From: an uncultured Bacteroides sp.
GTDB taxonomy: Bacteria; Bacteroidota; Bacteroidia; Bacteroidales; Bacteroidaceae
Reading direction: 5' to 3'
Assembly (NCBI GenBank): GCA_947074295.1
Contig: CAMTPC010000027.1
Location: forward strand, 1 to 33,548
DNA length: 33,548 bases
The notes below the pieces were generated by a model that saw only the letters and a list, made by a program, of their open reading frames with translations, was not told the DNA's origin and searched no databases. Of this stretch, positions 3 to 31,361 are shown piece by piece. A program made the translations under genes and the position numbers. Positions within the stretch are counted from its first letter, which is position 1. Each line of letters begins with the position of its first letter.

Positions 3-1277
3 GAAGCCAACTCATTAGTACTTTTCACTGATGACTTCTATGCATATCCTATTATAGATACTTCATTCGAAGGTTTGGAAACTAAACGTTGTCAGGCTCC
101 TCTTTCAGCTATTGGTCAGAAAAACATCGCTATTACAGGCGAAGGTATCTTTGACGGTGCTGGTGACAGCTGGCGTCCAGTAAAGAAAGGTAAGATGACT
201 GCCAACCAATGGAAAAAGCTTGTAGCTTCTGGTGGTGTGCTCAATCCTAAGAAAGATATGTGGTTTCCTACAGCAGGAGCTTTGAAAGGTTTCGATGCTT
301 GTAAAAACTTCAACGTACCCGAGGGTATTGAAACAGAAGCAGAATGGAACGAGATCCGTCCATGGTTGCGTCCAGTGCTTTTGAGCTTCGTGAAATGTGA
401 CCTTGTATTGTTAGAAGGTGCTACATTCCGCAACTCTCCTAGCTGGTGTCTTCACCCACTATCATGTTCTAATGTGACTATCGACAATATCAAGGTATTC
501 AACCCATGGTATTCTCAAAACGGTGATGCACTTGACTTGGAATCTTGCAAAAACGTATTGGTAATCAATAGCTTGTTCGATGCTGGTGATGATGCAATCT
601 GTATCAAGTCTGGTAAAGACGAAGATGGTCGTCGTCGTGGCGAGCCTTGCGAAAACATTGTAGTGATGAACAACAGCGTTCTTCATGGTCATGGTGGTTT
701 CGTTGTAGGTAGCGAAATGTCAGGTGGTGTGAAAAACGTATATGTATCAGACTGTACTTTCATGGGTACTGATGTAGGTCTTCGTTTCAAGAGTACTCGT
801 GGCCGTGGTGGTGTAGTAGAAAACATCTACATCAACAACATCAACATGATCAACATCCCTAACGAACCTCTATTGTTCGACTTGTTCTATGGTGGTAAAG
901 GTCCAGGCGAGGAAACAGAAGAAGAACGTGCTGCAAACACTAAGACTGACATGCCAGCTGTGACAGAAGAAACTCCATCATTCCGCGATATCCACATCTC
1001 TAATGTGACTGTTAAGGGTTCTGGCCGTGCTATCTTCTTCAATGGTCTTCCAGAAATGCCTGTGAAAAACATCACAGTAAGAGACGTGGTGATCACAGAA
1101 GCAACAGAAGGAGTGGTGTTGAGCCAAACAGACAACGTAGTATTGGAAAACATCTACATCCATACAAAAACTCCACAGCCAACGCTTCAAATCAGAAGCT
1201 CGAAAGATGTTACTGTAAACGGTAAACTCTTCAAATCGATTGATGCTAGCTGGTTGAAGATGGACTTCAAACAATAA
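3..1277 (+). CDS. GH28 polygalacturonase-like glycoside hydrolase, 5' truncated by the window edge
   Basis: This is the C-terminal part of a family 28 pectin hydrolase, expected to cleave alpha-1,4-galacturonosyl or rhamnogalacturonan linkages in pectin by inversion. The reading frame is open from base 3, so the real start lies upstream; the TTG at 75 is internal. The GH28 landmarks appear in order: an N-x-D motif (NGDALDLESC, Asp codon 525-527), a paired Asp motif (AGDDAICIKSG, codons 588-593), a GHG motif inside LHGHGGFVVGSE, and an R-x-K motif (GLRFKSTRGRGG). The repeated short Asn- and Ile-rich strands fit a right-handed beta-helix. The signal peptide, if present, is out of view, so the location (probably periplasm or surface) is inferred. 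Codon use is strongly biased (CGT, GGT, AAC, TTC), like the susC gene downstream, which suggests high expression. Family assignment is firm; exact substrate is not. Confidence 0.93.
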   Translation, partial: EANSLVLFTDDFYAYPIIDTSFEGLETKRCQAPLSAIGQKNIAITGEGIFDGAGDSWRPVKKGKMTANQWKKLVASGGVLNPKKDMWFPTAGALKGFDACKNFNVPEGIETEAEWNEIRPWLRPVLLSFVKCDLVLLEGATFRNSPSWCLHPLSCSNVTIDNIKVFNPWYSQNGDALDLESCKNVLVINSLFDAGDDAICIKSGKDEDGRRRGEPCENIVVMNNSVLHGHGGFVVGSEMSGGVKNVYVSDCTFMGTDVGLRFKSTRGRGGVVENIYINNINMINIPNEPLLFDLFYGGKGPGEETEEERAANTKTDMPAVTEETPSFRDIHISNVTVKGSGRAIFFNGLPEMPVKNITVRDVVITEATEGVVLSQTDNVVLENIYIHTKTPQPTLQIRSSKDVTVNGKLFKSIDASWLKMDFKQ

Positions 1278-1303
1278 AAAACAATATCATTGTGATCTGA
1301 TAT

Positions 1304-1358
1304 AAGAGGCAGACTTTCTATCTTTGCAAGGTGAAAGGGCTGCCTCTTTCGCTTTTTT
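1304..1358 (+). terminator. Hairpin and T-tract downstream of the GH28 gene, overlapping the next promoter
   Basis: AAGAGGCAG (1304-1312) pairs perfectly with CTGCCTCTT (1340-1348), and a six-T run follows at 1353-1358. This fits an intrinsic terminator for the GH28 transcript, although the 27-nt loop is long. The loop contains the TATCTTTG -7 box proposed for the next gene, so terminator and promoter occupy the same bases. Confidence 0.5.
1319..1326 (+). promoter_or_regulatory. Candidate Bacteroidetes -7 promoter box for the DUF4861 gene
   Basis: TATCTTTG matches the Bacteroidetes -7 consensus TAnnTTTG. Transcription would begin near 1333, about 45 nt before the ATG at 1378. That rules out the upstream TTG at 1324 as the translation start, since it lies inside this box. 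I see no convincing -33 TTTG at the usual distance. Confidence 0.5.
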
Positions 1359-1377
1359 ATCAATACATTATACAAAT

Positions 1378-2601
1378 ATGATCATGCTAAAAACATTCTC
1401 ACTCTTTTGTTTCACAGCCTTCGCATCAATGGCATTGATGGCACAACCTGCCACAAAGACCATCACCGTCGAGGTGAAGAATCCCGCTAAGGAAGCTCGT
1501 ACAGATGTACCTGTAGTGATCGACCTGAATGCGCTACAACCTGGCTTTATCGTGAAATCGGCTGTTGTCGTATCGGGCAACGAAGAAATCCCATCTCAAT
1601 TGGATGATCTTACACGCAATCGCCGTGCCGATGAGTTGGCTTTCGTAGCAAATATTCCAGCCAAGAAAACACGCACATTCACTGTGACTTTGTCTTCGGA
1701 GAAAAGTGATAGAGTATACACCCCCCGTGTTTTTGCTCAGATGCTGGTGAGCGACAAAAAAGGCAAGCATGTGCCTATTCAATCACTAACAATACCAGGT
1801 AGTAGCAATGTCTATAATCAGTTGCATCATCATGGACCCGCTTTCGAGTCAGAATTGGTGGCTTATCGCCTTTATTTCGACCATAAACAGACCCTCGATA
1901 TCTATGGCAAGTTTAATCCAGGTTTCGAAATTGAAGAATCTCAATTCTATCCCACTGACGAGCAGTTAGCGCGAGGTTTTGGAGACGATGTGTTGCGAGT
2001 TAGTGGAAGCTGTGGTGCGGGCGCATTCAAAGGTTGGGATGGCAAGAAAGCCATTCATACCAATCCGGTTGATACTCGCACAGAGCGTATCGTAGCTTAC
2101 GGGCCCGTGCGTACCATCGTTGAAAACGAAGTAGAAGGTTGGAAATATCAGGATAGTGAGCTCAATATGACTACGCGCTATACACTCTATGCTGGTCATC
2201 GCGATCTTTTTGTTGAAGCTTTCTTTGACGAACCTTTGACCGACCAAACTTTCGCTACTGGTGTGCAAGATGTAAAAGGATCCATATCCTTCTCCGATCA
2301 CAAAGGTTTGGTAGGCTGTTGGGGCACGGATTGGCCAGTAAATGATACGATAAAATATGCCAAGGAAACAGTTGGTCTGGCTACGTTTATTCCAAAGAAA
2401 TATGTAGTACAAGAAGCAAAAGATAAACCCAACTATCTCTATGTGGTCAATGCTCCAGGTCAGCAATACCTGAACTATTACACCACATTTACTTCTTTGA
2501 AAGAGAATTTCGGTTATAAGACTCCCGAAGCATGGTTTGCCCACATCCAAGCATGGCGCGATGAATTGGAAAATCCTTGCATCGTTACCATAAAAGAATA
2601 A
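1378..2601 (+). CDS. DUF4861 family secreted protein of a pectin-type PUL
   Basis: This encodes a protein of about 407 aa with an N-terminal signal peptide (MIMLKTFSLFCFTAFASMALMAQ), so it is exported, probably to the periplasm. The rest matches my recollection of the DUF4861 family, including the Gly-rich stretch GSCGAGAFKGWDGKK followed by NPVDTRTERIVAYGPVRT. I know no established activity for this family well enough to assign one, and no standard hydrolase or lyase motif is obvious. DUF4861 genes commonly sit beside polygalacturonases and unsaturated-uronate enzymes, and here the gene follows a GH28, so a role on galacturonate-containing oligosaccharides is inferred. The start at 1378 was chosen because a -7 box lies at 1319-1326 and the signal peptide begins there; the ATG at 1384 is an alternative. 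Confidence 0.8.
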   Translation: MIMLKTFSLFCFTAFASMALMAQPATKTITVEVKNPAKEARTDVPVVIDLNALQPGFIVKSAVVVSGNEEIPSQLDDLTRNRRADELAFVANIPAKKTRTFTVTLSSEKSDRVYTPRVFAQMLVSDKKGKHVPIQSLTIPGSSNVYNQLHHHGPAFESELVAYRLYFDHKQTLDIYGKFNPGFEIEESQFYPTDEQLARGFGDDVLRVSGSCGAGAFKGWDGKKAIHTNPVDTRTERIVAYGPVRTIVENEVEGWKYQDSELNMTTRYTLYAGHRDLFVEAFFDEPLTDQTFATGVQDVKGSISFSDHKGLVGCWGTDWPVNDTIKYAKETVGLATFIPKKYVVQEAKDKPNYLYVVNAPGQQYLNYYTTFTSLKENFGYKTPEAWFAHIQAWRDELENPCIVTIKE

Positions 2602-2696: not shown

Positions 2697-2751
2697 CAAT
2701 TATTCCACCTATCTATCCAATTACTCCACCAAATAAACGGATTATTCAACC
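2697..2751 (+). promoter_or_regulatory. Three 13-bp direct repeats at exact 21-bp spacing, putative activator site
   Basis: CAATTATTCCACC (2697-2709), CAATTACTCCACC (2718-2730) and GGATTATTCAACC (2739-2751) start exactly 21 bp apart, that is two helical turns, so a bound oligomer would sit on one face of the DNA. The last repeat ends 20 bp before the TACTTTTG -7 box at 2772. A perfect copy of the first repeat lies at 6457-6469 in reverse orientation, again 20 bp from a -7 box on that strand. This is the arrangement expected of a PUL activator site such as that of a hybrid two-component regulator. No such regulator gene is in the window. Confidence 0.6.
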
Positions 2752-2771
2752 GCAGATTCATCCTTGACTAT

Positions 2772-2779
2772 TACTTTTG
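2772..2779 (+). promoter_or_regulatory. Candidate -7 promoter box for the GH43 gene
   Basis: TACTTTTG matches TAnnTTTG. Predicted transcription begins near 2786, about 40 nt before the ATG at 2827. No -33 TTTG is present at the usual distance; the three direct repeats occupy that space instead, which fits an activator-dependent promoter. Confidence 0.6.
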
Positions 2780-4617: not shown

Positions 4618-4625
4618 TACTTTTG
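4618..4625 (+). promoter_or_regulatory. Candidate -7 box upstream of the HAD gene
   Basis: TACTTTTG matches TAnnTTTG and lies inside a small palindrome (ACTAC-TTTT-GTAGT, 4616-4629). If used, it would give a leader of about 200 nt before the HAD start at 4832, unusually long compared with the 20-75 nt predicted for the neighbours. It may instead be a chance match or drive a short untranslated transcript. Confidence 0.3.
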
Positions 4626-5484: not shown

Positions 5485-6402
5485 TTATTCCAATATGCCT
5501 ATCTCGTAGAGCCAAGTCTCTGCGAGAAAAGGCCATTGTTGCGTGCTGCCAGGTTGCTGACGCAATGAAATACTATGACCTCCTTCGGGAAAGATATGCA
5601 GACTACTACCTTTAACTCCTGCCTCCTTTAACGCACTGTAATACAAAATACTATTCATAGACGATACCGATCTATCATTATCTGCATGTATCAAAAGTGC
5701 AGGTGGAGTATTGTCATTTACCCTTTTGTGGCACGAAAATTGTTCTATACTTTCCGCTTTAGCGTCTTTTCCTAATAAATTGTCGCGACTACCCTTATGC
5801 GTATAGTCACTCATAGAGATGACAGGAGAGATAAGGATTGTGAAGTTGGGTCGGAAATTTAAGTTGTCCAGTGCATCTTTGCCTAGACCCCAATCTTCGG
5901 TAAATGTTGACAAGCTTGCCGATAAATGGCCGCCTGCCGATGAACCCATTACACCGACTTTATTTAGATCGATGGCAAAGCTATCTGCATTAGCACGGAT
6001 ATGGCGCATAGCTCGCTGTGCGTCAGCCAAAGGTGCCTCGTGACTTGTGATGACATCTGGAGATTGCGGCATGCGATGATTCAATACAAAAGCTGTTATG
6101 CCTATTGTGTTGAACCATTTGGCCAATTGCCATCCACTGATTTGGTAAGCCAAGCGTGCATAGCCACCTCCAGGAATGATCAATACAGCAGCTCCTTTGT
6201 TTTCGGCTTTCGAAGGTTGGAAAACATAATATCCAGGAACACCTACTTGGTAAATACGTTCATTGGCTATGCTGTCTTTGATGCATATACCGCGACTATT
6301 AGGCATATTATCATTCCAAATAGGGATGAAATCTTGTGCATGCATAGACGAAAAAAACAGGATGCATAACAGGCAGATTAAAAGCTTTTTAAGTAAAAAC
6401 AT
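5485..6402 (-). CDS. Secreted alpha/beta-hydrolase esterase, carbohydrate acetylesterase-like
   Basis: The 305-aa product has a signal peptide (MFLLKKLLICLLCILFFSSMHAQ), so it is probably periplasmic. It has the alpha/beta-hydrolase pattern of bacterial acetylxylan esterase and BD-FAE-type enzymes: oxyanion loop IPGGGYARLAY (about 76-86), nucleophile Ser155 in GSSAGGHLSASL, acid Asp243 in HADNDRSV and His276 in EGGHSISL. Such enzymes remove acetyl or small acyl groups from sugars; in this PUL pectin or hemicellulose acetyl esters are the inferred target. The gene is transcribed against its neighbours, converging with the HAD gene and diverging from the second esterase. Its promoter carries a perfect copy of the 13-bp element found before the GH43 gene, which suggests co-regulation despite its opposite orientation. 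Confidence 0.88.
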   Translation of the reverse strand: MFLLKKLLICLLCILFFSSMHAQDFIPIWNDNMPNSRGICIKDSIANERIYQVGVPGYYVFQPSKAENKGAAVLIIPGGGYARLAYQISGWQLAKWFNTIGITAFVLNHRMPQSPDVITSHEAPLADAQRAMRHIRANADSFAIDLNKVGVMGSSAGGHLSASLSTFTEDWGLGKDALDNLNFRPNFTILISPVISMSDYTHKGSRDNLLGKDAKAESIEQFSCHKRVNDNTPPALLIHADNDRSVSSMNSILYYSALKEAGVKGSSLHIFPEGGHSISLRQQPGSTQQWPFLAETWLYEIGILE

Positions 6403-6428: not shown

Positions 6429-6436
6429 CAAATATA
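6429..6436 (-). promoter_or_regulatory. Candidate -7 box for the divergent esterase gene
   Basis: On the minus strand the bases read TATATTTG, a match to TAnnTTTG. Predicted transcription starts near 6422, about 20 nt before the ATG at 6402. The 13-bp activator-like element ends 20 bp upstream of this box, the same gap as in the GH43 promoter. Confidence 0.55.
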
Positions 6437-6456: not shown

Positions 6457-6490
6457 GGTGGAATAATTGTTTGAAGTTTATGAAAAATCA
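6457..6490 (-). promoter_or_regulatory. Perfect copy of the 13-bp element plus a degenerate copy 21 bp upstream
   Basis: Bases 6457-6469 read CAATTATTCCACC on the minus strand, identical to the first GH43 repeat. Exactly 21 bp further upstream (6478-6490) the minus strand reads TGATTTTTCATAA, matching 8 of 13 bases of the third GH43 repeat. The proximal copy ends 20 bp before the TATATTTG box. Orientation relative to the promoter is the same as before the GH43 gene, so the element probably serves the minus-strand esterase rather than the plus-strand one. Confidence 0.55.
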
Positions 6491-6533: not shown

Positions 6534-6541
6534 TATTTTTG
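6534..6541 (+). promoter_or_regulatory. Candidate -7 box for the CE7-like esterase gene
   Basis: TATTTTTG matches TAnnTTTG and would start transcription near 6548, about 28 nt before the ATG at 6576. The 20-bp-upstream position shows no resemblance to the 13-bp element, so this promoter may be controlled differently. Confidence 0.5.
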
Positions 6542-7883: not shown

Positions 7884-7913
7884 TATTCTACAACATACTG
7901 TCAAAAAATACGG

Positions 7914-7935
7914 GTGTAAAAACAGTTTTTGCACA
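7914..7935 (+). promoter_or_regulatory. Palindrome and weak 13-bp-element match before susC
   Basis: GTGTAAAAAC (7914-7923) and GTTTTTGCAC (7925-7934) form an inverted repeat around one base, with a single mismatch. The overlapping bases 7923-7935 match the 13-bp element at 9 of 13 positions and end exactly 20 bp before the -7 box at 7956, the spacing seen at two other PUL 1 promoters. Either feature could be an operator; the spacing favours the shared-activator reading. Confidence 0.4.
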
Positions 7936-7955: not shown

Positions 7956-7963
7956 TATTTTTG
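7956..7963 (+). promoter_or_regulatory. Candidate -7 box for the susC-susD operon
   Basis: TATTTTTG matches TAnnTTTG. Transcription would start near 7970, giving a leader of about 75 nt to the ATG at 8047. The earlier in-frame ATG at 7972 would be at the very start of the mRNA and lacks a following signal peptide, so this box decides in favour of 8047. Confidence 0.55.
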
Positions 7964-8046
7964 TAGCGTGAATGACACCAAATTGTCTTATAAAACAAAC
8001 AGATTTAGAATTCAAAACAATCTTATTTAATAACTTACTTAATAAC

Positions 8047-11000
8047 ATGCAAAGAATGTCTAACCAAGTGAAAAACATGCGCACTGTGATGCTCATGCTA
8101 TTCGCAGCGCTTTCATTTAACCTATCAGCGCAGACCATTACCGTGACTGGTAATGTGATTGATTCGACCGGCGAGCCAGTAATTGGTGCATCTGTGATCG
8201 AAAAAGGAAACACGTCAAATGGTACTGTAACTGACTTTGACGGAAACTATTCTCTTAAAGTCCCCACTAATGCAACAATCGTTTTCTCGTACATCGGTAT
8301 GAAGACAAGCGAAGTGCCAGTGAAGGGACAAACTACGTTGAATGTAACTTTGGGCGAAGATTCTGAAGTATTAGAAGATGTTGTAGTTATTGGTTATGCT
8401 ACAGTAGCAAAACGTGACCTTACAGGTTCGGTTGCTTCGGTAAGTGCCAAACAACTGGAAGCGATTCCTGTATCTAGTGCATCAGAAGCGTTGACTGGTA
8501 AATTGGCTGGTGTATCTATTACTACTACTGAAGGTTCTCCAGATGCAGATGTGAAGATCCGCGTTCGTGGTGGTGGTTCGCTTTCGCAAGATAACTCACC
8601 TCTTTACATCGTTGACGGTTTCCCAGTGAGCAGCATCAGTGATATCGCTCCTTCGGACATCCAGTCTATCGACGTATTGAAAGATGCTTCTTCTACTGCT
8701 ATCTACGGTGCTCAAGGTGCTAATGGTGTAATCATTATCACTACTAAATCGGGTAAAGAAGGTAAAATCCAAGTAAACTTCGGTGCATCTTTGGGTTGGA
8801 GAAAAGTAGCTAAGATGACCAAGACTATGGACCCTTACAACTATGCATACTATCAGTATGAGCAAGGTTCTACAGCCTACGGTGAATTCAATGACTTGGA
8901 TATCTGGAAATCAGTTCAAGGTAACGACTTCCAAAAAGATATTTTCGGCAACACAGGTACACAACAACAATATAACGTAAGTGTAAGTGGTGGTACTAAA
9001 GAAACTAAGTTTTCTGTTTCTTACTCTCGTAACAATGAAAACAGTATCATGCGCAACTCTGGTTTCGCGAAAGATAACATCAACGCAAAAATCAATACTG
9101 AACTTAATAAATGGATCAAATTGGACTTCAACGCTCGTTTGGCCAATACACATATCCGCGGTTTAAGTGGTGGTGCTGATACAAATGAATCGAATGCTGC
9201 CAACTCTATTGTTGCTAACTCAGTGCGTTTCCGTCCAGTAGATCCTATTGATCAATCTTCTGACGATGATGATGAGAATAACACAACACGTCAGTACAAT
9301 CCATTGGAGCGTCTGGATGCAACTTATAAAACTCGTAGAGACTTCAAACAAAACTACAACTTAGGTTTAGACTGGAGACCTTTCAAAGGATTCCGTGTAC
9401 GTACTGAGTTTGGTTATGGTTTCCGTCGTTTGGATACAGACCAGGTATGGGAATCACCAGCGGTTCAAAACTCTAACTTGGGTGATAATGGTATGCCTCA
9501 GGCAGTACTTGTTCGTTTGAAGAACAACAACTGGAGAAATGCTACAACTGTAAGCTACAACACGAAATTCTTCAATGGTCGTGACCGTTTTGACGTGATG
9601 ATTGGTGAGGAAGTAACAAGCTCGCAAGACAAAGAACTTGTAATGACAGCAACTGCTTTCCCAACTACTATGACTAGAGAAGAAATTCTAGCTAACATGG
9701 GTGCAGCAGGTACAACTCATCCTACTCAAAGTACTATCGGTATCAATGACAATATGGTTTCGTTCTTCGGACGTGTGAACTATACAATCAACGACCGTTA
9801 CCTCTTCACTGCTACAATGCGTGCTGACGGTTCTTCTAAATTTGCTCAAAGCAACCGTTGGGGTTATTTCCCATCAGCAGCTTTTGCATGGCGTATGAAT
9901 GAAGAACAATTTATGGCTGGTACTAGAGACTGGTTGTCAAGCTTGAAATTCCGTGCATCTTTTGGTATGGCTGGTAACAACCGTATCCCTGCTGGTTTGA
10001 TGTACACTACCTACTCTATGGCTGCTGCTACTTCTAAAGGTCCTTACTTCGGTGAGATCTTCAACACGATGATGGAACATGGTTCAACTCTTTCAAATCC
10101 AAAATTGAAATGGGAAACAACAATCACTCGTAACGTTGGTTTCGACTTCGGTTTCTGGAACAACCGTCTATCGGGTACTATCGATGCTTACTGGAACACA
10201 ACAAGCGATCTTTTGATGCGTACAGAAATTCCTGCTAACACAGGTTATTCTTACCAATACCAAAACTTCGGTAAGACTTCTAATAAAGGTATCGAGTTGC
10301 AGTTGAATGCTGGAATTATCCAAAATAGAAACTTCAACCTTGATTTCAACATGAACATCGCATACAACAAAAACCGTATCGATGAACTGAATACAAACAA
10401 TCCATGGCAAAGCTCTAACTGGGCTGGTTCTACACTTTCTAAATACGAAGACTTCCGTGTTGAAAAAGGTGGTAGCCTAGGTGAAGTTTGGGGTTTCAAG
10501 AGCAATGGTTATTTCACTGTTTTCGATGAGAAAAACAATCCTAACGGTGAGTTGGTTTGGAACAATGGCTCATGGGCTCTTCGTCCAGGTTTGAATGATA
10601 ACTCGCAAACAATCACTGGTGGTGCTTACTATCCTGGTGGTTTGAAACTTCAGGTTGACGAAAACGGTGATCCTATCAAGCAAAAACTAGGTAATACAGT
10701 AGCTCCAATCAATGGTGGTTTCGGTGTATCAGGTGCTTGGGGTAATTTCGACTTTATGGTATTCTTCAACTTCTCTTTGGGTCATCAGTTGATCAACGGT
10801 ACGAAGTTGGCTACAGCATTCCGTGCTGGTTCGGCAATGGGCTACAACTTGAACGCAGACTTTAACCTAGACAACCGTTATACATGGATTGACCCTGCAA
10901 CAGGTTTGAACCTTGGACGTCCATCAAACAGCACTATCAACTCTTACGGTGGTATCGATAACGTGATCAATCGCTTGAATGAAATGAATGCAGGTGCAAA

Positions 11001-11307
11001 TATGTACAATCCAGTAGGTGTAACTACTATGCAATTGTTTGACTATGCAGTAGAGAATGCTTCATTTCTACGTGTGAATAATATTTCTGTGGGTTATACA
11101 TTGCCAAAGAACTTAGTGAGAAAAGTATGGTTAGAAAATGTACGTCTATACTTCACAGGCTATAACCTATTCTGCTTCACAAAATACTCTGGTGCAGACC
11201 CAGAAGTTGATACTTCGAGCAAGCGTAACGCTATGACTCCAGGTGTGGATTATGCTGCATATCCTAAGAGCCGCACATTCGTAGGTGGTATCAACGTTTC
11301 ATTTTAA
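8047..11307 (+). CDS. susC: SusC-like TonB-dependent outer-membrane transporter (PUL 1)
   Basis: This is a large outer-membrane beta-barrel that imports oligosaccharides captured by its SusD partner, energised by TonB. From the chosen start it has about 1086 residues: a signal peptide ending near LSFNLSAQ, a carboxypeptidase-regulatory-like domain (TVTGNVIDSTGEPVIGASVIEKG and following), the SusC signature region VVVIGYATVAKRDLTGSV before the plug domain (plug segment SPLYIVDGFPV), and a C-terminal barrel ending in the aromatic outer-membrane signature TFVGGINVSF. The start at 8047 leaves a normal signal peptide; the ATG at 8056 is an alternative and 7972 is rejected because of the promoter. 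It is followed after 20 bp by susD. Codon use is highly biased, consistent with strong expression. With GH28 and the beta-helix binding protein nearby, pectic oligosaccharides are the likely cargo. Confidence 0.95.
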   Translation: MQRMSNQVKNMRTVMLMLFAALSFNLSAQTITVTGNVIDSTGEPVIGASVIEKGNTSNGTVTDFDGNYSLKVPTNATIVFSYIGMKTSEVPVKGQTTLNVTLGEDSEVLEDVVVIGYATVAKRDLTGSVASVSAKQLEAIPVSSASEALTGKLAGVSITTTEGSPDADVKIRVRGGGSLSQDNSPLYIVDGFPVSSISDIAPSDIQSIDVLKDASSTAIYGAQGANGVIIITTKSGKEGKIQVNFGASLGWRKVAKMTKTMDPYNYAYYQYEQGSTAYGEFNDLDIWKSVQGNDFQKDIFGNTGTQQQYNVSVSGGTKETKFSVSYSRNNENSIMRNSGFAKDNINAKINTELNKWIKLDFNARLANTHIRGLSGGADTNESNAANSIVANSVRFRPVDPIDQSSDDDDENNTTRQYNPLERLDATYKTRRDFKQNYNLGLDWRPFKGFRVRTEFGYGFRRLDTDQVWESPAVQNSNLGDNGMPQAVLVRLKNNNWRNATTVSYNTKFFNGRDRFDVMIGEEVTSSQDKELVMTATAFPTTMTREEILANMGAAGTTHPTQSTIGINDNMVSFFGRVNYTINDRYLFTATMRADGSSKFAQSNRWGYFPSAAFAWRMNEEQFMAGTRDWLSSLKFRASFGMAGNNRIPAGLMYTTYSMAAATSKGPYFGEIFNTMMEHGSTLSNPKLKWETTITRNVGFDFGFWNNRLSGTIDAYWNTTSDLLMRTEIPANTGYSYQYQNFGKTSNKGIELQLNAGIIQNRNFNLDFNMNIAYNKNRIDELNTNNPWQSSNWAGSTLSKYEDFRVEKGGSLGEVWGFKSNGYFTVFDEKNNPNGELVWNNGSWALRPGLNDNSQTITGGAYYPGGLKLQVDENGDPIKQKLGNTVAPINGGFGVSGAWGNFDFMVFFNFSLGHQLINGTKLATAFRAGSAMGYNLNADFNLDNRYTWIDPATGLNLGRPSNSTINSYGGIDNVINRLNEMNAGANMYNPVGVTTMQLFDYAVENASFLRVNNISVGYTLPKNLVRKVWLENVRLYFTGYNLFCFTKYSGADPEVDTSSKRNAMTPGVDYAAYPKSRTFVGGINVSF

Positions 11308-11327: not shown

Positions 11328-13259
11328 ATGAAAAATATATTTAAGAATTTCTTATTAGGAGCTGCTACAGTAGGTGTAATGACCTCTTGTAACGACTTTC
11401 TGAATCAAAGTTCTCCCTCTGAATTGACAGAAGAGAATGTATTCAATTCAATATACTACGCTAATAATGTATTGAATAAAGTGTATGGCGAGTTGACACT
11501 TGACCAAACTTATTCTCAATACTTTGGTTTCGTTTGGCATCTTAACTCTGACTATGAATTGGTAGATGGATTGGGAACCAACGCTATCAATGCTTCGAGT
11601 GAGCGTGGTAACATGAACTACAACCAGAACTCGGGTTGGGCTAACTTGGCACGTGCATGGGACAACATGTTTAGTGTTATCGAATATGCTAATATCGTGG
11701 TTCACGGTATTACTAATAGCTCACTCTTGGGCGAAGATGCTAGCACAGTGCGTCAAGCATTGCAAATCAAAGCTGAAGCGCAAACGCTTCGTGCTATGGT
11801 TTATCTTGATATGATCCGTAATTTTGGTGATATGCCTATGAAGATGGAGCCTTCTAAGTCTGACCTTAGCAACGCTTATCTTTCAAAAACTGATCGTGAT
11901 GATATCCTAGACTTCTTGATTGAAGATTTGGAAGACGCTATTCCTAACTTGCCTTGGGCAGGTGCGGTAACTACTGAACACGTGACTCGTGGTTATGCAC
12001 ATTCACTTTTGGCTAACATTGCTTTGACTCGTGCAGGATGGGCTATCCGTGAATCGGCTAAAGCTGGTTACGAAACAGCTACTATTACTGATCCTACTTA
12101 TCCAACTCAACGCCCAGGTCAAGAAGAGCGTACTGCCCTTTATAACAAAGCGCTTACACACTTGACAGAAGTAATCACTTCTGGTCGTCACCAATTGAAC
12201 CCTTCTATCGCTAATCACTGGTATTTGGTAAATCAATTGGAGCTGGATCAGACTTACAAAGAAAATATCTTCGAAATTCCTATGGGTCTTGGTCGCTCGG
12301 GCGAGCTGGGCTATACAGTAGGCGTTCGTATCAATGGTTCTTCTACACTTTATGGTGAAAAAGGTAACTCATCGGGTAAAGTGAAATTGGCTGCACCTTA
12401 TTTCTGGTCATTCGACAGAAACGACTTGCGTCGTGATTTGACTTGTGCACCTTATGTATTGAAAGAAACTGACGGTGTAGTAGTAGAAAGTTTTGATGGT
12501 AACAAGCCATTTGAGATCTATGTAGCGAAATGGGATATCCGTAAGATGAGCGACAAATGGCGCGAAACTGCCATTGCTACTGGTAATGCAAAATGGATGT
12601 CGGGTATCAATGTGACTAAGATGCGTTATTCTTATGTACTGTTGATGTATGCTGAAGTGATGAATGAACTATATGGTCCTGATGTAAATGGCTCTGCTGG
12701 TATGACAGCTCGTCAAGCTTTGGGTCTAGTACATACACGTGCTTTTGCTGCTGAAGACAAAGCTGCTGCACAGACTTATATAGACAATATTCCAGGTAGC
12801 CAACAAGACTTCTTCAACGCTATCGTTGACGAAAATGCTTGGGAGCTTGCTGGTGAAGGTTATCGCAAATATGACTTGATTCGTTGGAACCTATTAGGTA
12901 CAAAGATTGACCAAATGAAAGCTGACTATGCCGCTCAAATCGAAGAGTATCCTGCTAAATTGTACTTCAAGTACAAAGCTGATAATGCTACTATCGATAT
13001 GTCTACTGTACAATGGTATGCTAGCAAAGACGAACAAGATGAGTTTGCTGATCAAGCTGCTTCTGAAGGTTGGGAAAATAAAGCGTTCTGGGGTGCTGAA
13101 GCTACTTCTACTACTCAAACCAATCTTTTGGAATATGCGCCAAGTATCAGTGGTGGTCTTAACTCGACTGTTATCAATAGATATGTGATGCCAATCGCAT
13201 CTACTACCATCTCTGCATCTAACGGTACATTGAGCAACTCTTACGGATTCAGCAATTAA
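11328..13259 (+). CDS. susD: SusD/RagB-like surface glycan-binding lipoprotein (PUL 1)
   Basis: This 643-aa protein is the lid partner of the SusC transporter, capturing glycan fragments at the cell surface. It begins with a lipoprotein signal peptide with lipidated Cys21 (VGVMTSCNDFLNQ). SusD-type features include the SSPSELTEENVF opening, helical TPR-like segments such as LRAMVYLDMIRNFGDMP, and the late MRYSYVLLMYAEVMNE and GEGYRKYDLIRWN segments. It is longer than the more usual 500-570 residues, with an extended C-terminal region. It lies 20 bp after susC and 27 bp before the third gene, so one transcript is likely. The ligand cannot be read from sequence; pectin fragments are inferred from the locus. 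Confidence 0.95.
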   Translation: MKNIFKNFLLGAATVGVMTSCNDFLNQSSPSELTEENVFNSIYYANNVLNKVYGELTLDQTYSQYFGFVWHLNSDYELVDGLGTNAINASSERGNMNYNQNSGWANLARAWDNMFSVIEYANIVVHGITNSSLLGEDASTVRQALQIKAEAQTLRAMVYLDMIRNFGDMPMKMEPSKSDLSNAYLSKTDRDDILDFLIEDLEDAIPNLPWAGAVTTEHVTRGYAHSLLANIALTRAGWAIRESAKAGYETATITDPTYPTQRPGQEERTALYNKALTHLTEVITSGRHQLNPSIANHWYLVNQLELDQTYKENIFEIPMGLGRSGELGYTVGVRINGSSTLYGEKGNSSGKVKLAAPYFWSFDRNDLRRDLTCAPYVLKETDGVVVESFDGNKPFEIYVAKWDIRKMSDKWRETAIATGNAKWMSGINVTKMRYSYVLLMYAEVMNELYGPDVNGSAGMTARQALGLVHTRAFAAEDKAAAQTYIDNIPGSQQDFFNAIVDENAWELAGEGYRKYDLIRWNLLGTKIDQMKADYAAQIEEYPAKLYFKYKADNATIDMSTVQWYASKDEQDEFADQAASEGWENKAFWGAEATSTTQTNLLEYAPSISGGLNSTVINRYVMPIASTTISASNGTLSNSYGFSN

Positions 13260-13286
13260 TCCTAACTTTAAAGTATTATACTATTT

Positions 13287-14978
13287 ATGAAATCAAATAA
13301 AGCTAAAATATATATGTTAGGAGCCATGGCGCTCCTAACGTCTACAGCCTTCGTTTCATGCGAAGATGTGAACGATTGGACTACAGACAGTGCTTACGAT
13401 CGTCTGTTTGCTCCTAGCAGCCTTTCTATTTCTGCCGACGCTACTGATGCCGAGGTGACTTGGAAATCGACTCCTGGAACAGAATTTTATGTGATCGAGT
13501 TGAGTACAGACTCTCTTTTCGGTTTGCAAGATGATTATCGTGCTACTTCTCAGGTTTTGGGTCAGGACGGTTCTATCACAAAATCGCCTTTCCAATTGGA
13601 AGACTTGAACAACAGCTCAAAATACTTTATCCGTATCAAGGCTTGTTCTAGCGTAAAATCGGCTTCAAACTGGACCTATCCTGAAAAGATCTTTTTCACT
13701 ACGAAGAGCGAAAATATCTTGAATGCTATCACTAATGCTGATAAGGGTCAAGATTATATCACATTGAACTGGCAAGCAGGTTTGTCTGTAACACATGTTG
13801 TATCACAAGAAATCCTTGGAACTTCTGAAGAAGGTGCAAATCTTTATGGTGAAGAAGTGGTGTTGCAATTGACGAATGAAGATATTGCAAACGGTACAGT
13901 GACTATCAATGGTCTACAACCATCTACTGGCTATTTATTGTCTATCTATAACAACCAGACTTGTCGTGGTACACGTGTAGCCACTACTATCATGTCTCTT
14001 CCAGATGCTGACCTGACTGTAGTTTTGGATGAAACTACAACATTGACACAAGACTTGATTGACTCATGGATTGGTAAGCAAAGTGTGACAGTTGCATTTA
14101 TGCCTGGTGTAGAATATGATATCGTAGGTGTGGATCCATTGACTGGCGAAGTAGCTGGTTTGAGCATTCCTACTGGTATGTCATTGACTCTTTATGGTAT
14201 GGAAGGTGATGAGCCAGCACAATTGAATTTGAAACGTGAGTTTATCTTCAAGGGTACACATGGATATTTCAGAATGTTGAACATTGATATAAATGACGCG
14301 GGTGCACAGTATATGTTCAACCAAGGTACAGCTGCTTCTATTGTAGAAATCAAATTCACTAACTGTAACTTCAATGACTTCGCTCGTAACATCGTTCGTT
14401 GTAAAGATCAAGCATCTATTACTATCGATGAGTTGAAATTTGACAACTGTGTGATCACTAATCAAGGTGGTGGAAACTATCCTATCATCGGTCTTGATGC
14501 AAAAGAATATACTGTAAGCAACATCGAGTTCAACGACTGTACATTCAACACAATCAAGCATAACGGTATTGCACTTTATAACTCTGGCCGTGGTTTGGCA
14601 TCTGTAAATACTATCACGTTCAATGATTGTACACTCTATAATGCAATCGGTTCAGGACGTTATATCGTAGACTCGGGTTCGACTAGCCAAGGTCCAGTAG
14701 TAACTTTCAACAATACGATCATCGGTAAAACAAATGTAGCTACTCTTACAGATGGTGTATGGAGTTCTAAGTCTAAGGGTGTACGCTCTTCATCGGTTAT
14801 CTCTAACAACTCTTATAGACTAGCTGATGGTGTATTTGATAGTAATGATATCAAGACTCTGATTGACTTCAATGCTGATTCTGACGCAGTTTTTGGAAAT
14901 CCTGCAAATGATGATTTCACTATCAAGGATAGAAATTTCCCAGAAGGTGTTGGTGCTACACGTTGGTACGCTAACTAA
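13287..14978 (+). CDS. Surface lipoprotein with FnIII-like N-terminus and beta-helix C-terminus (DUF4957/DUF5123 type), putative pectin-binding SGBP
   Basis: This 563-aa lipoprotein (Cys25 in TAFVSCEDVNDW) occupies the position of a surface glycan-binding protein, right after susC-susD. Residues about 40-240 form one or two fibronectin-III-like modules (SLSISADATDAEVTWKS; ITLNWQAGL). From about 320 to 500 short repeats of the type I-x-F-x-[ND]-C-x-[FIL] (FTNCNF, FDNCVI, FNDCTF, FNDCTL, FNNTII) indicate a right-handed parallel beta-helix, the fold of pectin lyases and polygalacturonases. I see no polygalacturonase catalytic motifs (NTD, DD, GHG), so it is probably a binding protein and not an enzyme. 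This matches DUF4957/DUF5123 proteins of pectin PULs as I remember them. The acidic residues after the lipid cysteine (EDVND) fit surface export. Transcription ends at the hairpins at 15016-15133. Confidence 0.85.
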   Translation: MKSNKAKIYMLGAMALLTSTAFVSCEDVNDWTTDSAYDRLFAPSSLSISADATDAEVTWKSTPGTEFYVIELSTDSLFGLQDDYRATSQVLGQDGSITKSPFQLEDLNNSSKYFIRIKACSSVKSASNWTYPEKIFFTTKSENILNAITNADKGQDYITLNWQAGLSVTHVVSQEILGTSEEGANLYGEEVVLQLTNEDIANGTVTINGLQPSTGYLLSIYNNQTCRGTRVATTIMSLPDADLTVVLDETTTLTQDLIDSWIGKQSVTVAFMPGVEYDIVGVDPLTGEVAGLSIPTGMSLTLYGMEGDEPAQLNLKREFIFKGTHGYFRMLNIDINDAGAQYMFNQGTAASIVEIKFTNCNFNDFARNIVRCKDQASITIDELKFDNCVITNQGGGNYPIIGLDAKEYTVSNIEFNDCTFNTIKHNGIALYNSGRGLASVNTITFNDCTLYNAIGSGRYIVDSGSTSQGPVVTFNNTIIGKTNVATLTDGVWSSKSKGVRSSSVISNNSYRLADGVFDSNDIKTLIDFNADSDAVFGNPANDDFTIKDRNFPEGVGATRWYAN

Positions 14979-15152: not shown

Positions 15153-17144
15153 CTACTTATAGCCGTGTGGAGCGTTTGTATGATTATCAATATCAATACT
15201 GAATTTTTTCATATCTTCTAAATCATAAATGGGACGTTCCAGATCGCTAGGAATAGGTAAGCCCGAGAATTCTTGAAAATACAACAAACATCCATCGCGC
15301 CACCACATTGCGTCGCGTGTCTGCTGTTTTAACTTTGATTGTACTTCTAGGAATGTATCTTCATCTACATATGGTTGCATCTCATCCCACGTTTTTTGTA
15401 ACTCTCGTGCTTGATTCACTCCTTCGCTATAGCGATAGCACAATTCATCCCAAACAGTGCGACCACTTTGCATGGTATGTGTCCAGGGCACATGATGAAA
15501 CCATAATAAGAGTTCATCAGGACAAGTTGCTACATTATCATATAGTGCGCGGAGAGAATCGGGATATTGTGCCGTGGCATTGCTACCTGTATGACTACGG
15601 TCAAAACCTATTCCTTTGGTAGTGGCGCGATGATAGTATGAAGGCATCCAGTCGGGTCGTGCTCCTTCAATATCACACCATGGCTCTGGACCATAATGAT
15701 GTCCCCAAGCAAATAGATGATGAAGGCCAAGTGGCATCATGTAGTTTACTACTGCCTCACGACTATCGAGCATCATTTTTTTTACGGGAGTAACAAATGC
15801 CTCGTTCGTCGTGAAGGTTTGTTTAAGCCATTCATCTGCGATGATATCCGAGCCAAGTTTAGGATTCCAAGCCAAACGGCCATAAGCGTACCAGTTGGCC
15901 TGTCCGAAAGGGTGACCTGTCCAATTAGTGTCAGTACCGATATTGGCTACTCCTGCGATAGCATCTAGTGAAGTGGGTGGCACAAATTCAAAAAACTCTG
16001 TCCACATAGGAGCCAAATAGGCAAGGTGATTGGCATGTCCTAGGTATTCCTGTGTAACTTGAAATTCCACCATTTCATCCGTTTGCGGCAAAGCTCCAAA
16101 TAATGGGCTATACGGTTCGCGTGGTTGGAAATCTACGGGCCCATTCTTAATTTGGATTATCACGTTGTCACGAAACTCACCATCCAAGGGCTGAAACTCC
16201 AGATATGCTTGCTTCGCTCTATCCGCATCAGAAGGATCGTAAACGAAAGCGCGCCACATCACAGTTCCCTTATAGGGCTTCACGGCATCGGCCAGCATAT
16301 TAGCCCCTTCGGCATGGGTGCGGTTATAATCACAAGGACCTGGTTGTCCTTCCGAATTGGCTTTCACAAGGAATCCACCGAAATCAGGAATTAAGGTGTA
16401 GATTTCTTTTGCTTTATCTTTCCACCATTTTTGAACTTCTATATCTTGTGGATCGGCAGTCTCCAGACCGCCAATTGCCATAGGAGAAGCGAAGTTTACA
16501 GACAGAAAAGTTTGGATGCCATATGGACGGAACAGATCAGCCAAGCGCTGGACTTTCTTTAAATATTCGGTTGACAGGATTTCGGGTGAGGCATTCACAT
16601 TATTCAATACCACTCCGTTGATACCTATAGACGCATTGGCGCGAGCATATTCTTCATAACGTGGCGAGACAACCTCAGGTAGTTCTTCCCATTGCCACAA
16701 AGATTTTCCCGAATAACCCCTTTCTACCGATCCGTCTAAATTGTCCCAATGATTGAGCATGCGCATGCTATAAGCTGGGTTCTCGGTTACCTCTGTCATC
16801 GATTCACCTGTTTGTTGCGAACGAATCAGATGATAAGTAGCATATAATAATCCTACCTCAGTAGGCGATGAAAGAATATATTTCCCATTTTTTAGAGTAA
16901 TGGTATAGCCATCAGGTTTAAGATTCTTATTTTTCTGTAACTTAAGTTCAACTGGTGCACCCTGCCAACCTTTTTCCAATTCGTTGGTGGCAATAGTTAA
17001 AGTTGGGCTTTTGCGGGGTAGCTTTACCTCTGTGGTTTTTCCATTATTATCGTATTTCAACCACAGCCTGCTACCATCATCCGCTTTGGAGAATGATGTG
17101 ATTACCCAAAGCGCGATAAATAGTAAAATGAGCTTTCTGTTCAT
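15153..17144 (-). CDS. aguA: GH67 xylan alpha-glucuronidase
   Basis: This enzyme removes 4-O-methyl-glucuronic acid from the non-reducing end of xylo-oligosaccharides. The 663-aa product has a signal peptide (MNRKLILLFIALWVITSFSKA) and the GH67 architecture: N-terminal domain, central TIM barrel, C-terminal helical domain. The catalytic residues can be placed: acid Glu265 in KANSEGQPGP and bases Asp338 in NGPVDFQ and Glu366 in QVTQEYLG. Each is offset by 27 from Glu292, Asp365 and Glu393 of Cellvibrio japonicus GlcA67A as I recall them, a consistent alignment. It is the last gene of the operon; its ATG overlaps the stop of the upstream GH43 by four bases (ATGA), which suggests translational coupling. 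The signal peptide implies a periplasmic enzyme. GH67 acts on short oligosaccharides, consistent with action after import by SusCD. Confidence 0.96.
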   Translation of the reverse strand: MNRKLILLFIALWVITSFSKADDGSRLWLKYDNNGKTTEVKLPRKSPTLTIATNELEKGWQGAPVELKLQKNKNLKPDGYTITLKNGKYILSSPTEVGLLYATYHLIRSQQTGESMTEVTENPAYSMRMLNHWDNLDGSVERGYSGKSLWQWEELPEVVSPRYEEYARANASIGINGVVLNNVNASPEILSTEYLKKVQRLADLFRPYGIQTFLSVNFASPMAIGGLETADPQDIEVQKWWKDKAKEIYTLIPDFGGFLVKANSEGQPGPCDYNRTHAEGANMLADAVKPYKGTVMWRAFVYDPSDADRAKQAYLEFQPLDGEFRDNVIIQIKNGPVDFQPREPYSPLFGALPQTDEMVEFQVTQEYLGHANHLAYLAPMWTEFFEFVPPTSLDAIAGVANIGTDTNWTGHPFGQANWYAYGRLAWNPKLGSDIIADEWLKQTFTTNEAFVTPVKKMMLDSREAVVNYMMPLGLHHLFAWGHHYGPEPWCDIEGARPDWMPSYYHRATTKGIGFDRSHTGSNATAQYPDSLRALYDNVATCPDELLLWFHHVPWTHTMQSGRTVWDELCYRYSEGVNQARELQKTWDEMQPYVDEDTFLEVQSKLKQQTRDAMWWRDGCLLYFQEFSGLPIPSDLERPIYDLEDMKKFSIDIDNHTNAPHGYK

Positions 17145-18115
17145 TTGTCTAATCCTTCAATTGTGATGATATGTCCTTCTTTATCATACTCTAGTTCGCA
17201 TACCTTCAAGCTGCGCAGCCAGGTGCGACCGCCTGAGGGCGCGCTGTCGTGATGGAAAAGATACCATTTACCTTTGTATTCAATGATTGAATGGTGTGTG
17301 GTCCATCCTACAACAGGTGTCATTATTTTGCCTTGATAGGTGAAAGGGCCATAAGGATTGTCACCTGTGGCATAGCAAAGGTTGTGTGTATCTCCCGTTG
17401 AATAGCTGAAGTAGTATTTCCCATTATATTTATGCATCCAACTAGCCTCAAAGAAACGACGTTCGGTATCGTCGGCAGTAATTGGCATACCATTTTCATC
17501 TAAAATCATAATAGGTTTCGGCTCTTCCGCAAATTGCAACATATCATCCGTAAGCTTTACGATACGTGCAGGAATAGCAGGTTCGCCATCAGCAGGAAAA
17601 GTAGCACACTCCAATGCCTTGTTATCACAATAGCGTTGTAGTTGTCCGCCCCAAAGTCCGCCAAAATAGATATAATAACTTCCATCTTCTTCGAACACAG
17701 CAGGGTCGATACTGTAACTGCCACGAATAGGGTCGGGTTGTGGCTTGAAAGGTCCTGTTGGACTATCGCTTATGGCAACTCCCATCCGGAAGATGTCATT
17801 CTTATCTTTCAGAGGGAAATACATGTAATACTTGCCCTCTTTGCACGCCACATCGCAATCCCATAATTGTCTGCCAGCCCATGGGATATCATCTGTGTCA
17901 AGCACTACACCATAGTCAGTCACTTCGCCTTCCATCACATCATCTACTGAAAATACATGGTAGTCTTTCATGTTGAAATGATCGCCATTGTCATTTTCGG
18001 CTATACCGCTTTCCCAGTCATGCGAGGGATAAATATAAAGTTTGCCATCAAACACGTGTACTGAAGGATCAGCCATATAGTCATTAGGTACGAGATATCT
18101 TTTCTTTGTTTTCAT
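17141..18115 (-). CDS. Cytoplasmic GH43 beta-xylosidase / alpha-L-arabinofuranosidase
   Basis: This single-domain GH43 enzyme of 324 aa resembles subfamily 1. The catalytic acids are Asp16 in YMADPSVHV, Asp137 in YSIDPAVFEEDG and Glu223 in RFFEASWMHKYNG. From the start MKTKKRYLVPNDYMADPS there is no signal peptide, so it should work in the cytoplasm on xylobiose or arabinosylated xylo-oligosaccharides brought in by the symporter two genes upstream. The open frame extends to 18181, but the extra 22 residues include a non-conserved segment reaching back into the end of the GH10-GH43 gene; the ATG at 18115 places the DPS motif where this family normally has it. It overlaps the GH67 gene by four bases. 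Confidence 0.93.
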   Translation of the reverse strand: MKTKKRYLVPNDYMADPSVHVFDGKLYIYPSHDWESGIAENDNGDHFNMKDYHVFSVDDVMEGEVTDYGVVLDTDDIPWAGRQLWDCDVACKEGKYYMYFPLKDKNDIFRMGVAISDSPTGPFKPQPDPIRGSYSIDPAVFEEDGSYYIYFGGLWGGQLQRYCDNKALECATFPADGEPAIPARIVKLTDDMLQFAEEPKPIMILDENGMPITADDTERRFFEASWMHKYNGKYYFSYSTGDTHNLCYATGDNPYGPFTYQGKIMTPVVGWTTHHSIIEYKGKWYLFHHDSAPSGGRTWLRSLKVCELEYDKEGHIITIEGLDK

Positions 18116-18158
18116 AATAATTATTGTTTTAGTTTTTAAGTAGTTTAAGATGTTATGT

Positions 18159-20855: not shown

Positions 20856-20883
20856 AATTCTTGTTTTATGCGATTAGAAATAA

Positions 20884-22380: not shown

Positions 22381-22410
22381 ATTATTAGTTATTATATGTT
22401 GTTTCAAGAT

Positions 22411-24069: not shown

Positions 24070-24078
24070 GGTTTTCTA

Positions 24079-25797: not shown

Positions 25798-25823
25798 CCT
25801 AATGATTTTATAGATTATTAGTC

Positions 25824-25854
25824 GAGGAAAGACCCGAAGGCCGAGCCTTTCCTC
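25824..25854 (-). other. Intercistronic RNA hairpin inside the xylan operon
   Basis: In the transcribed (minus) strand, 13 bases at 25854-25842 pair with 13 bases at 25836-25824 around a 5-nt loop (GCCTT). Eight outer pairs are perfect, and two inner positions are G-U wobbles in this strand. In the plus strand the same positions would be A-C mismatches, so the fold favours the operon mRNA. No T-tract follows, so it is not a standard terminator. It lies between the GH10 and GH35 genes. Confidence 0.6.
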
Positions 25855-25875
25855 TTTAATTAATTTCTGTTGTTT

Positions 25876-28203: not shown

Positions 28204-28227
28204 AACAGTTTCGCATTAAGTTCTTAA

Positions 28228-29613: not shown

Positions 29614-29633
29614 AATAATCTGTCAGTTAGTGA

Positions 29634-31343: not shown

Positions 31344-31361
31344 TTTTATTTCGGTTTTAGA

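What the first reader, a model, noticed from the sequence alone, without database searches (positions are those of the whole stretch)
2697..2779. Three 13-bp repeats at exact 21-bp period set 20 bp from a -7 box
The element (C/G)(A/G)ATTA(T/C)TC(C/A)ACC occurs at 2697, 2718 and 2739 with exactly 21-bp spacing, ending 20 bp before TACTTTTG. Same-face phasing, the absence of a -33 box and the position before a PUL gene point to an activator array. I do not recognise this exact consensus as a described operator.
Basis: partly seen in the sequence, partly recalled or inferred. Interest (0 to 1): 0.72.

Follow-up and report, generated by a model that had tools for sequence, protein, structure and literature searches.

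The report
Pectin-sensor binding sites before sugar-enzyme gene
Three evenly spaced copies of a short DNA word sit at a fixed distance before a gut bacterium's sugar-digesting gene and most likely are the landing pads of a membrane sensor that switches on pectin-digesting genes; the kind of site is known, and its ruler-like placement next to the promoter is the part worth testing.

Summary
CAATTATTCCACC, CAATTACTCCACC and GGATTATTCAACC start at 2697, 2718 and 2739 and end exactly 20 bp before TACTTTTG. No shuffle of the intergenic region matched it (0 of 400), and the exact repeat-pair pattern matches nowhere else in the 3.73-Mb assembly. Two more promoters in the window show the design with the same 20-bp gap: the minus-strand esterase gene (strong) and susC (weak). 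In 80 related loci a matrix trained on GH43 promoters, window excluded, finds the element mainly before GH28, susC and GH43 genes; of hits not assigned to GH43, 45 of 55 lie at 20 bp. [quoted passage not shown] HTCS operators as 21-bp direct repeats are published (PMC3878776), so this is a new member of a known kind. The window's own assembly lacks the HTCS gene, apparently at a contig break; the two nearest of 60 searched genomes have it. Added here: the fixed register to the -7 box, seen without any motif across SusC promoters, and three-site arrays. Binding and induction are untested.

The parts
2697..2709 (+). operator repeat 1, CAATTATTCCACC
   Evidence: PWM score 18.6, the matrix maximum
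2718..2730 (+). operator repeat 2, CAATTACTCCACC
   Evidence: PWM 13.9
2739..2751 (+). operator repeat 3, GGATTATTCAACC, next to the core promoter
   Evidence: PWM 10.7
2772..2779 (+). -7 box TACTTTTG, 20 bp after repeat 3
   Evidence: TAnnTTTG is the published Bacteroides -7 consensus (passage of PMC7366714)
2827..4512 (+). GH43 + GH43_C2 enzyme (beta-xylosidase type), the gene behind the array
6457..6469 (-). operator repeat CAATTATTCCACC of the BD-FAE esterase promoter
6478..6490 (-). degenerate second repeat TGATTTTTCATAA, 21 bp upstream of the former
   Evidence: (PWM about 2)
6429..6436 (-). -7 box TATATTTG, 20 bp after the repeat
5485..6402 (-). BD-FAE-type esterase gene behind this promoter
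7902..7914 (+). weak operator repeat CAAAAAATACGGG of the susC promoter
   Evidence: PWM 2.4
7923..7935 (+). weak operator repeat CAGTTTTTGCACA of the susC promoter
   Evidence: PWM 5.4
7956..7963 (+). -7 box TATTTTTG of the susC promoter, 20 bp after the repeat
7972..11307 (+). SusC-type TonB receptor frame; the likely true start is the in-frame ATG at 8047 (MQRMSN, as in relatives)
11328..14978 (+). SusD (11328-13259) and DUF5123/DUF4957 protein (13287-14978) following susC
3..2601 (+). GH28 (5' end cut off by the contig end) and DUF4861 genes of the same conserved block; in relatives GH28 promoters carry the operator

Best explanation
The array is the operator of a pectin (homogalacturonan) sensing hybrid two-component system of the BT4111/BT4124 (HTCS_Rgu-1) type. 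A pectin oligosaccharide binds the periplasmic propeller domain; the kinase phosphorylates the receiver domain; the AraC-type DNA-binding domains are released and bind the 13-bp elements, which lie on one DNA face every two helical turns. The promoter-proximal element ends 20 bp before the -7 box, about where a -33 box would lie, so the bound domain is expected to replace the missing -33 contact and recruit RNA polymerase. The same regulator would act at the esterase and susC promoters here and, in relatives, at GH28 and pectinesterase promoters. Shown: repeats, register, conservation, regulon content, linkage to the HTCS in relatives. Inferred: binding, phosphorylation, polymerase recruitment and the inducer.
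For: Array exact and beyond chance. Three promoters in the window share the 20-bp register under a matrix trained without the window. In 80 relative loci, 71 deduplicated hits of 8 or more: 53 at 20 bp, 4 at 21, 5 at 41 (= 20+21), 9 elsewhere; genes at 20 bp include GH28 23, SusC 9, GH43 8; of the 55 not assigned to GH43, 45 are at 20 bp. Control, 16 own stretches around other HTCS genes (215 kb, 239 boxes): 2 hits. One HTCS clade lies in or beside the same pectin locus in several species (domains). In G004 and G052, the nearest of 60 searched genomes by GH43 identity, it lies downstream of a 575-aa gene (a pectinesterase in G052) whose promoter carries the element at 20 bp; the own genome has that gene and element, the contig ending inside the gene. 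GH43 (70% or more) and this HTCS (59% or more) co-occur: 33 of 38 GH43 genomes and 33 of 34 HTCS genomes, out of 60. Literature: HTCS motifs are direct repeats averaging 21 bp, and HTCS_Rgu-1 is two 12-bp sites with a 9-bp spacer whose regulon includes BT4187-85; a BT4111 mutant reaches 11.6% of wild-type growth density on homogalacturonan (PMC3243724); phosphorylation lets BT4124-RR bind the bt4114 promoter (PMC11253607).
Against: The HTCS gene is not found in the window's own assembly (best match 34%); the contig-break account is inference. 75 of 98 distinct GH43-upstream regions gave no array by the criterion. Only 7 of 14 stretches around the HTCS orthologs have the element at 20 bp. One of the two control hits is itself at 20 bp (score 10.8), on the own contig of the RG-I type HTCS. 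In G052 the susC pair is at 21 bp. Identity with BT4111 rests on synteny and literature, not on a B. thetaiotaomicron sequence; BT4124 disruption had no growth defect. The susC sites in the window are weak: shuffles reach a pair score of 6 in 32% of runs, against 7.8 observed. The published logo was not readable. No binding or expression data exist for this genome.
Confidence: 0.82

Rival explanations
1. The array is read by another HTCS: an RG-I type regulator like the one beside GH43 in B. xylanisolvens and B. faecis (probably BT4182-like, HTCS_Rgu-2), or the xylan HTCS of the neighbouring minus-strand operon.
For: An HTCS of the first type lies next to GH43 in L085 and L088, the own genome has a 39% relative on C35, and C35 has one matrix hit at 20 bp (score 10.8). 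A xylan PUL fills the right half of the window.
Against: HTCS_Rgu-2 is described as 14-bp sites with a 6-bp spacer, i.e. 20 bp. The C35 hit (CATATAATCCATT, CGATTCTCCATCT) is unlike the array. The relaxed element was not found at the xylan susC promoters of four relatives (L171, L172, L174, L175); in L175 ATGTTACAT repeats stand there instead, with looser words of that kind in L171 and L172 (by eye). The published regulon puts BT4187-85 under HTCS_Rgu-1.
Confidence: 0.1
2. The element is read by a stand-alone AraC-family or other regulator, not an HTCS.
For: AraC-family proteins also use direct repeats near 21 bp (recalled), and the genome has HTH_18 matches in open frames of about 300 aa, too short for an HTCS.
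Against: None of the 19 window proteins scanned with Pfam is a regulator; the regulator gene linked to the sites across species is an HTCS.
Confidence: 0.06
3. Chance repeats without function.
For: A+T-rich intergenic DNA gives weak repeats easily; the weak susC pair is within reach of chance taken alone.
Against: 0 of 400 shuffles; period, register and copy number conserved across species with diverged sequence.
Confidence: 0.02

Closest known systems
HTCS_Rgu-1 operators (BT4111/BT4124 regulon, B. thetaiotaomicron; Ravcheev et al. 2013, PMC3878776)
   Same: Direct repeats with a 21-bp period; pectin enzymes, SusCD and an outlying operon BT4187-85 described as removing xylose side chains and cutting the main chain, like the GH28-DUF4861-GH43 block here.
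   Different: Three copies instead of two here and in related species; fixed 20-bp gap to the -7 box measured here; exact published consensus not compared (supplement not readable).
HTCS operators in general (16 predicted motifs, same paper)
   Same: Two sites averaging 21 bp apart, read as monomers on one DNA face.
   Different: The parts of the paper that I read do not relate the sites to the -7 box; here the register is measured.
AraC-type class II activation (e.g. araI1-I2; recalled)
   Same: Direct repeats about 21 bp apart next to the core promoter, the activator standing in for a poor upstream box.
   Different: Bacteroidetes -7/-33 promoter, membrane-tethered phosphorelay regulator, three sites.

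Membership tests
HTCS operator | direct repeat with about 21-bp period | tested here: met
   conserved in relatives
HTCS operator | lies in promoters of PUL genes | tested here: met
   GH43, BD-FAE and (weak) susC in the window; GH28, SusC, GH43 in relatives
HTCS operator | cognate HTCS gene in the genome | tested here: inconclusive
   present in G004 and G052, the nearest of the 60 searched genomes; not found in the own 88%-complete assembly, whose contig C30 ends inside the pectinesterase gene that neighbours it there
HTCS operator | binding by the phosphorylated HTCS | not testable with these tools
   needs EMSA or footprint
HTCS_Rgu-1 operator (BT4111/BT4124) | two 12-bp sites with 9-bp spacer (21 bp) | tested here: met
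   period 21; conserved core of 12-13 bp
HTCS_Rgu-1 operator (BT4111/BT4124) | regulon of homogalacturonan enzymes, SusCD and a GH28/xylose-removing operon | tested here: met
   targets; pectinesterases, GH88 family, SusC and DUF5123 beside the HTCS in L244; judged by content, not by B. thetaiotaomicron sequences
HTCS_Rgu-1 operator (BT4111/BT4124) | published motif sequence | not testable with these tools
HTCS_Rgu-2 operator (BT4178/BT4182) | 14-bp sites with 6-bp spacer (20 bp) | tested here: not met
   period is 21
xylan HTCS operator (neighbouring PUL) | same element before the xylan susC gene in relatives | tested here: not met
   no match in L171, L172, L174, L175; L171, L172 and L175 read by eye

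The most novel reading that the evidence does not exclude
HTCS activators as a class work at a fixed register: the promoter-proximal 21-bp repeat ends about 20-25 bp before the -7 box and takes over the role of the -33 box, whatever the DNA word. A promoter could then be assigned to an HTCS from geometry alone, and the three-site arrays would show that a dimeric, membrane-tethered regulator can load an odd number of sites, implying more than one dimer or alternative registers.
Probability: 0.55. Interest if true: 0.58.

Novelty: new member of a known kind. Interest (0 to 1): 0.45.

Why it matters
The 2013 study found 36 HTCSs in B. thetaiotaomicron and could not predict a DNA motif for 20 of them. 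A fixed register to the -7 box is a simple extra constraint for finding such operators, gives a testable account of how these regulators start transcription on promoters without a -33 box, and would help in building sugar-responsive promoters in gut bacteria.

Tried and rejected
Relaxed genome search at 2 mismatches gave little beyond background apart from the two window sites. A plain self-similarity scan of own stretches around other HTCS genes with an 8-of-13 cut gave 9 boxes without a common word. The first attempt to set aside GH43 promoters failed by an error in my script (the joined string lacked the 8-bp spacer), so its line 'GH43: ' and its 'non-GH43' label are wrong; one search redoes this by downstream gene. 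One search assigns by nearest downstream ORF, so some hits may be misassigned, and its GH43 rows are partly circular: the matrix was trained on 15 GH43 promoters that I picked for their arrays at 20 bp. The HTCS beside GH43 in B. xylanisolvens and B. faecis was first taken as the regulator and dropped for the clade of L098/L103/L106. The xylan HTCS was dropped after looking at its promoters. All ten paper searches and the passages read in PMC12125979, PMC11501099, PMC6874557, PMC7366714, PMC11253607 and PMC3878776 gave no statement of a fixed distance between HTCS sites and the -7 box; the library lacks most subscription papers, and supplements could not be opened.

Full report
What is there. 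The ATG of the GH43 gene begins 48 positions after the end of the box. In 400 dinucleotide shuffles of the intergenic region no triple reached the observed similarity, and the exact repeat-pair pattern is unique in the genome.

More sites in the window. On the minus strand CAATTATTCCACC recurs at 6469-6457, again exactly 20 bp before a -7 box (TATATTTG), in front of the BD-FAE esterase gene. The susC promoter has CAAAAAATACGGG-N8-CAGTTTTTGCACA-N20-TATTTTTG. With a matrix trained on 15 GH43 promoters of relatives, window excluded, the four top scores fall on these three promoters, at 20 bp or, for repeats 1+2 of the array, at 41 bp (34 boxes x 56 spacings, counted). Taken alone the susC pair (7.8) is weak: in shuffles the best score over all boxes reaches 6.0 in 32% of runs and 20 in none of 300. 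Its weight comes from the exact register and from susC promoters in relatives.

Conservation. From I took the region upstream of the GH43 ortholog in 110 loci (98 distinct). By the criterion, which allowed only 20 or 21 bp, 23 of 98 carry the element: 22 at 20 bp and 1 at 21 bp. These 23 include the 15 training promoters, so the count is descriptive. The third copy scores 4.2 or more in 14 of 23 and the fourth below -5 in all 23, so arrays stop at three. In 21 of 23 no TTTG starts 17-28 bp before the -7 box; in two it lies at 20. The other 75 gave no array and were not sorted further.

Regulon. Scanning all 80 loci (1,558 boxes, spacings 5-60) gives 99 hits of 8 or more, 71 after removing similar ones: 53 at 20 bp, 4 at 21, 5 at 41 and 9 elsewhere. 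At 20 bp the next genes include GH28 (23), SusC (9) and GH43 (8). Of the 55 not assigned to GH43, 45 are at 20 bp. In 16 own stretches around other HTCS genes (215 kb, 239 boxes) there were 2 hits, one at 23 bp and one at 20 bp (score 10.8, on C35). In eight further stretches of G052, G004 and G021 there were 8 hits: 4 at 20, 2 at 21 (one the G052 susC promoter) and 2 elsewhere.

Regulator. A clade of HTCSs (propeller, kinase, receiver, AraC-type DNA-binding domain) lies beside or within the GH28/GH43/SusCD locus in B. luti, B. graminisolvens, Parabacteroides and others. Of 60 genomes of the genus searched, 34 have a match of 59% or more, two of these with stop codons inside. The five with GH43 but no such HTCS are G000 (the window's own), G011, G035, G037 and G048. 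In 14 stretches around HTCS orthologs the element at 20 bp was found in 7; five had no hit and two had hits only at 21 or 30 bp (cut-off 6). In G004 and G052, nearest of the 60 by GH43 identity, the HTCS gene lies downstream of a 575-aa gene whose promoter has the element at 20 bp; Pfam was run on the G052 copy, a pectinesterase with a GDSL domain. The own genome has that ortholog (77%, residues 1-466) at the very start of contig C30, with CAATATTTCCACC-N8-CGAAATTTATACT-N20-TACGTTTG before it. The HTCS therefore probably lies in the assembly gap. This is inference.

Link to the literature. PMC3878776 (passages, and section 8 in full) describes HTCS motifs as direct repeats averaging 21 bp. It assigns to BT4111/BT4124 a pectin regulon (HTCS_Rgu-1, two 12-bp sites, 9-bp spacer) that includes BT4187-85, described as removing xylose side chains and cutting the main chain. 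PMC3243724 (passages) reports that BT4108-23 responds most to homogalacturonan and that a BT4111 mutant reaches 11.6% of wild-type growth density on it, while BT4124 disruption gave no defect. PMC11253607 (abstract and passages) shows phosphorylation-dependent binding of BT4124-RR to the bt4114 promoter. Genome G001 is probably B. faecis: its contig has the same length as the named record behind L088 and its GH43 upstream region is identical. There the order GH88 family, two pectinesterases, HTCS, DUF5123, SusD, SusC agrees with BT4108-BT4114 as I recall it, and the susC promoter has the element at 20 bp. The equation with BT4111 is thus by synteny and recall.

Class-wide register. Without using any motif I aligned SusC promoters of three genomes (G000, G021, G042) on their TAnnTTTG boxes. 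I took 150 stretches of 169 matches listed (those lists hold only the 56 scored of 86, 179 and 197 candidates, 57 matches in G042). 149 were usable, 49 had a box in range, 56 boxes remained after removing similar ones, and 52 after removing those like this regulon. Over 33 lags x 50 offsets, self-similarity is highest at lag 21, the ten top cells all at lag 21 with the window ending 19-28 bp before the box; 0 of 300 shuffles reached it, with or without this regulon. In the smaller first set (32 boxes without this regulon) lag 21 led only narrowly (4.72 against 4.66 at lag 30). The words differ between promoters. The peak is broad and only 11 of 52 show 8 or more of 13 identities, so the register for other HTCSs is less sharp than for this one. 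100 of the 149 promoters had no box in range and are not explained by this.

Mechanism. Elements every 21 bp put each bound domain on the same face. The proximal element ends 20 bp before the -7 box, about where a -33 box would be (the -7 and -33 boxes are as cited in PMC7366714, passages). The likely role is to replace the -33 contact. Three sites for a regulator thought to bind as a dimer remain unexplained.

Verdict. Observation confirmed, interpretation supported, kind known. The fixed register is the part worth testing.

Noticed in passing
15153-33548 (minus strand): A xylan utilisation operon (GH67, GH43, GH10-GH43 fusion, MFS transporter, SASA esterase, GH35/42-type, GH10 with CBM4_9, SGBP, SusD, partial SusC) runs to the contig end, so its promoter and HTCS are not in the window.
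   Followed up: partly
L175 4040-4400; also L171 5630-6230, L172 7770-8250: In a relative (L175) the xylan susC promoter beside its HTCS carries ATGTTACAT repeats that look 20 bp apart; L171 and L172 show looser words of that kind (by eye). Possibly a separate xylan HTCS operator.
   Followed up: partly
18159-20855 (minus strand): An 898-aa protein joins a GH10 and a GH43 + GH43_C2 enzyme in one chain.
   Followed up: no
6534-6541: The AXE1-type esterase gene at 6576 has its own -7 box here, but the matrix found no pair at 20 bp before it (best at 60 bp, score 6.1); it may be controlled differently or share the BD-FAE operator.
   Followed up: no
L095 9926-9960: A GH43 promoter with a two-copy CC-rich form of the element at 21 bp rather than 20 bp from the -7 box, an exception to the register.
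   Followed up: no
4618-4625: A TACTTTTG box about 200 bp before the HAD hydrolase gene gave no operator hit among the top 15, so this gene may have a promoter of another kind.
   Followed up: no
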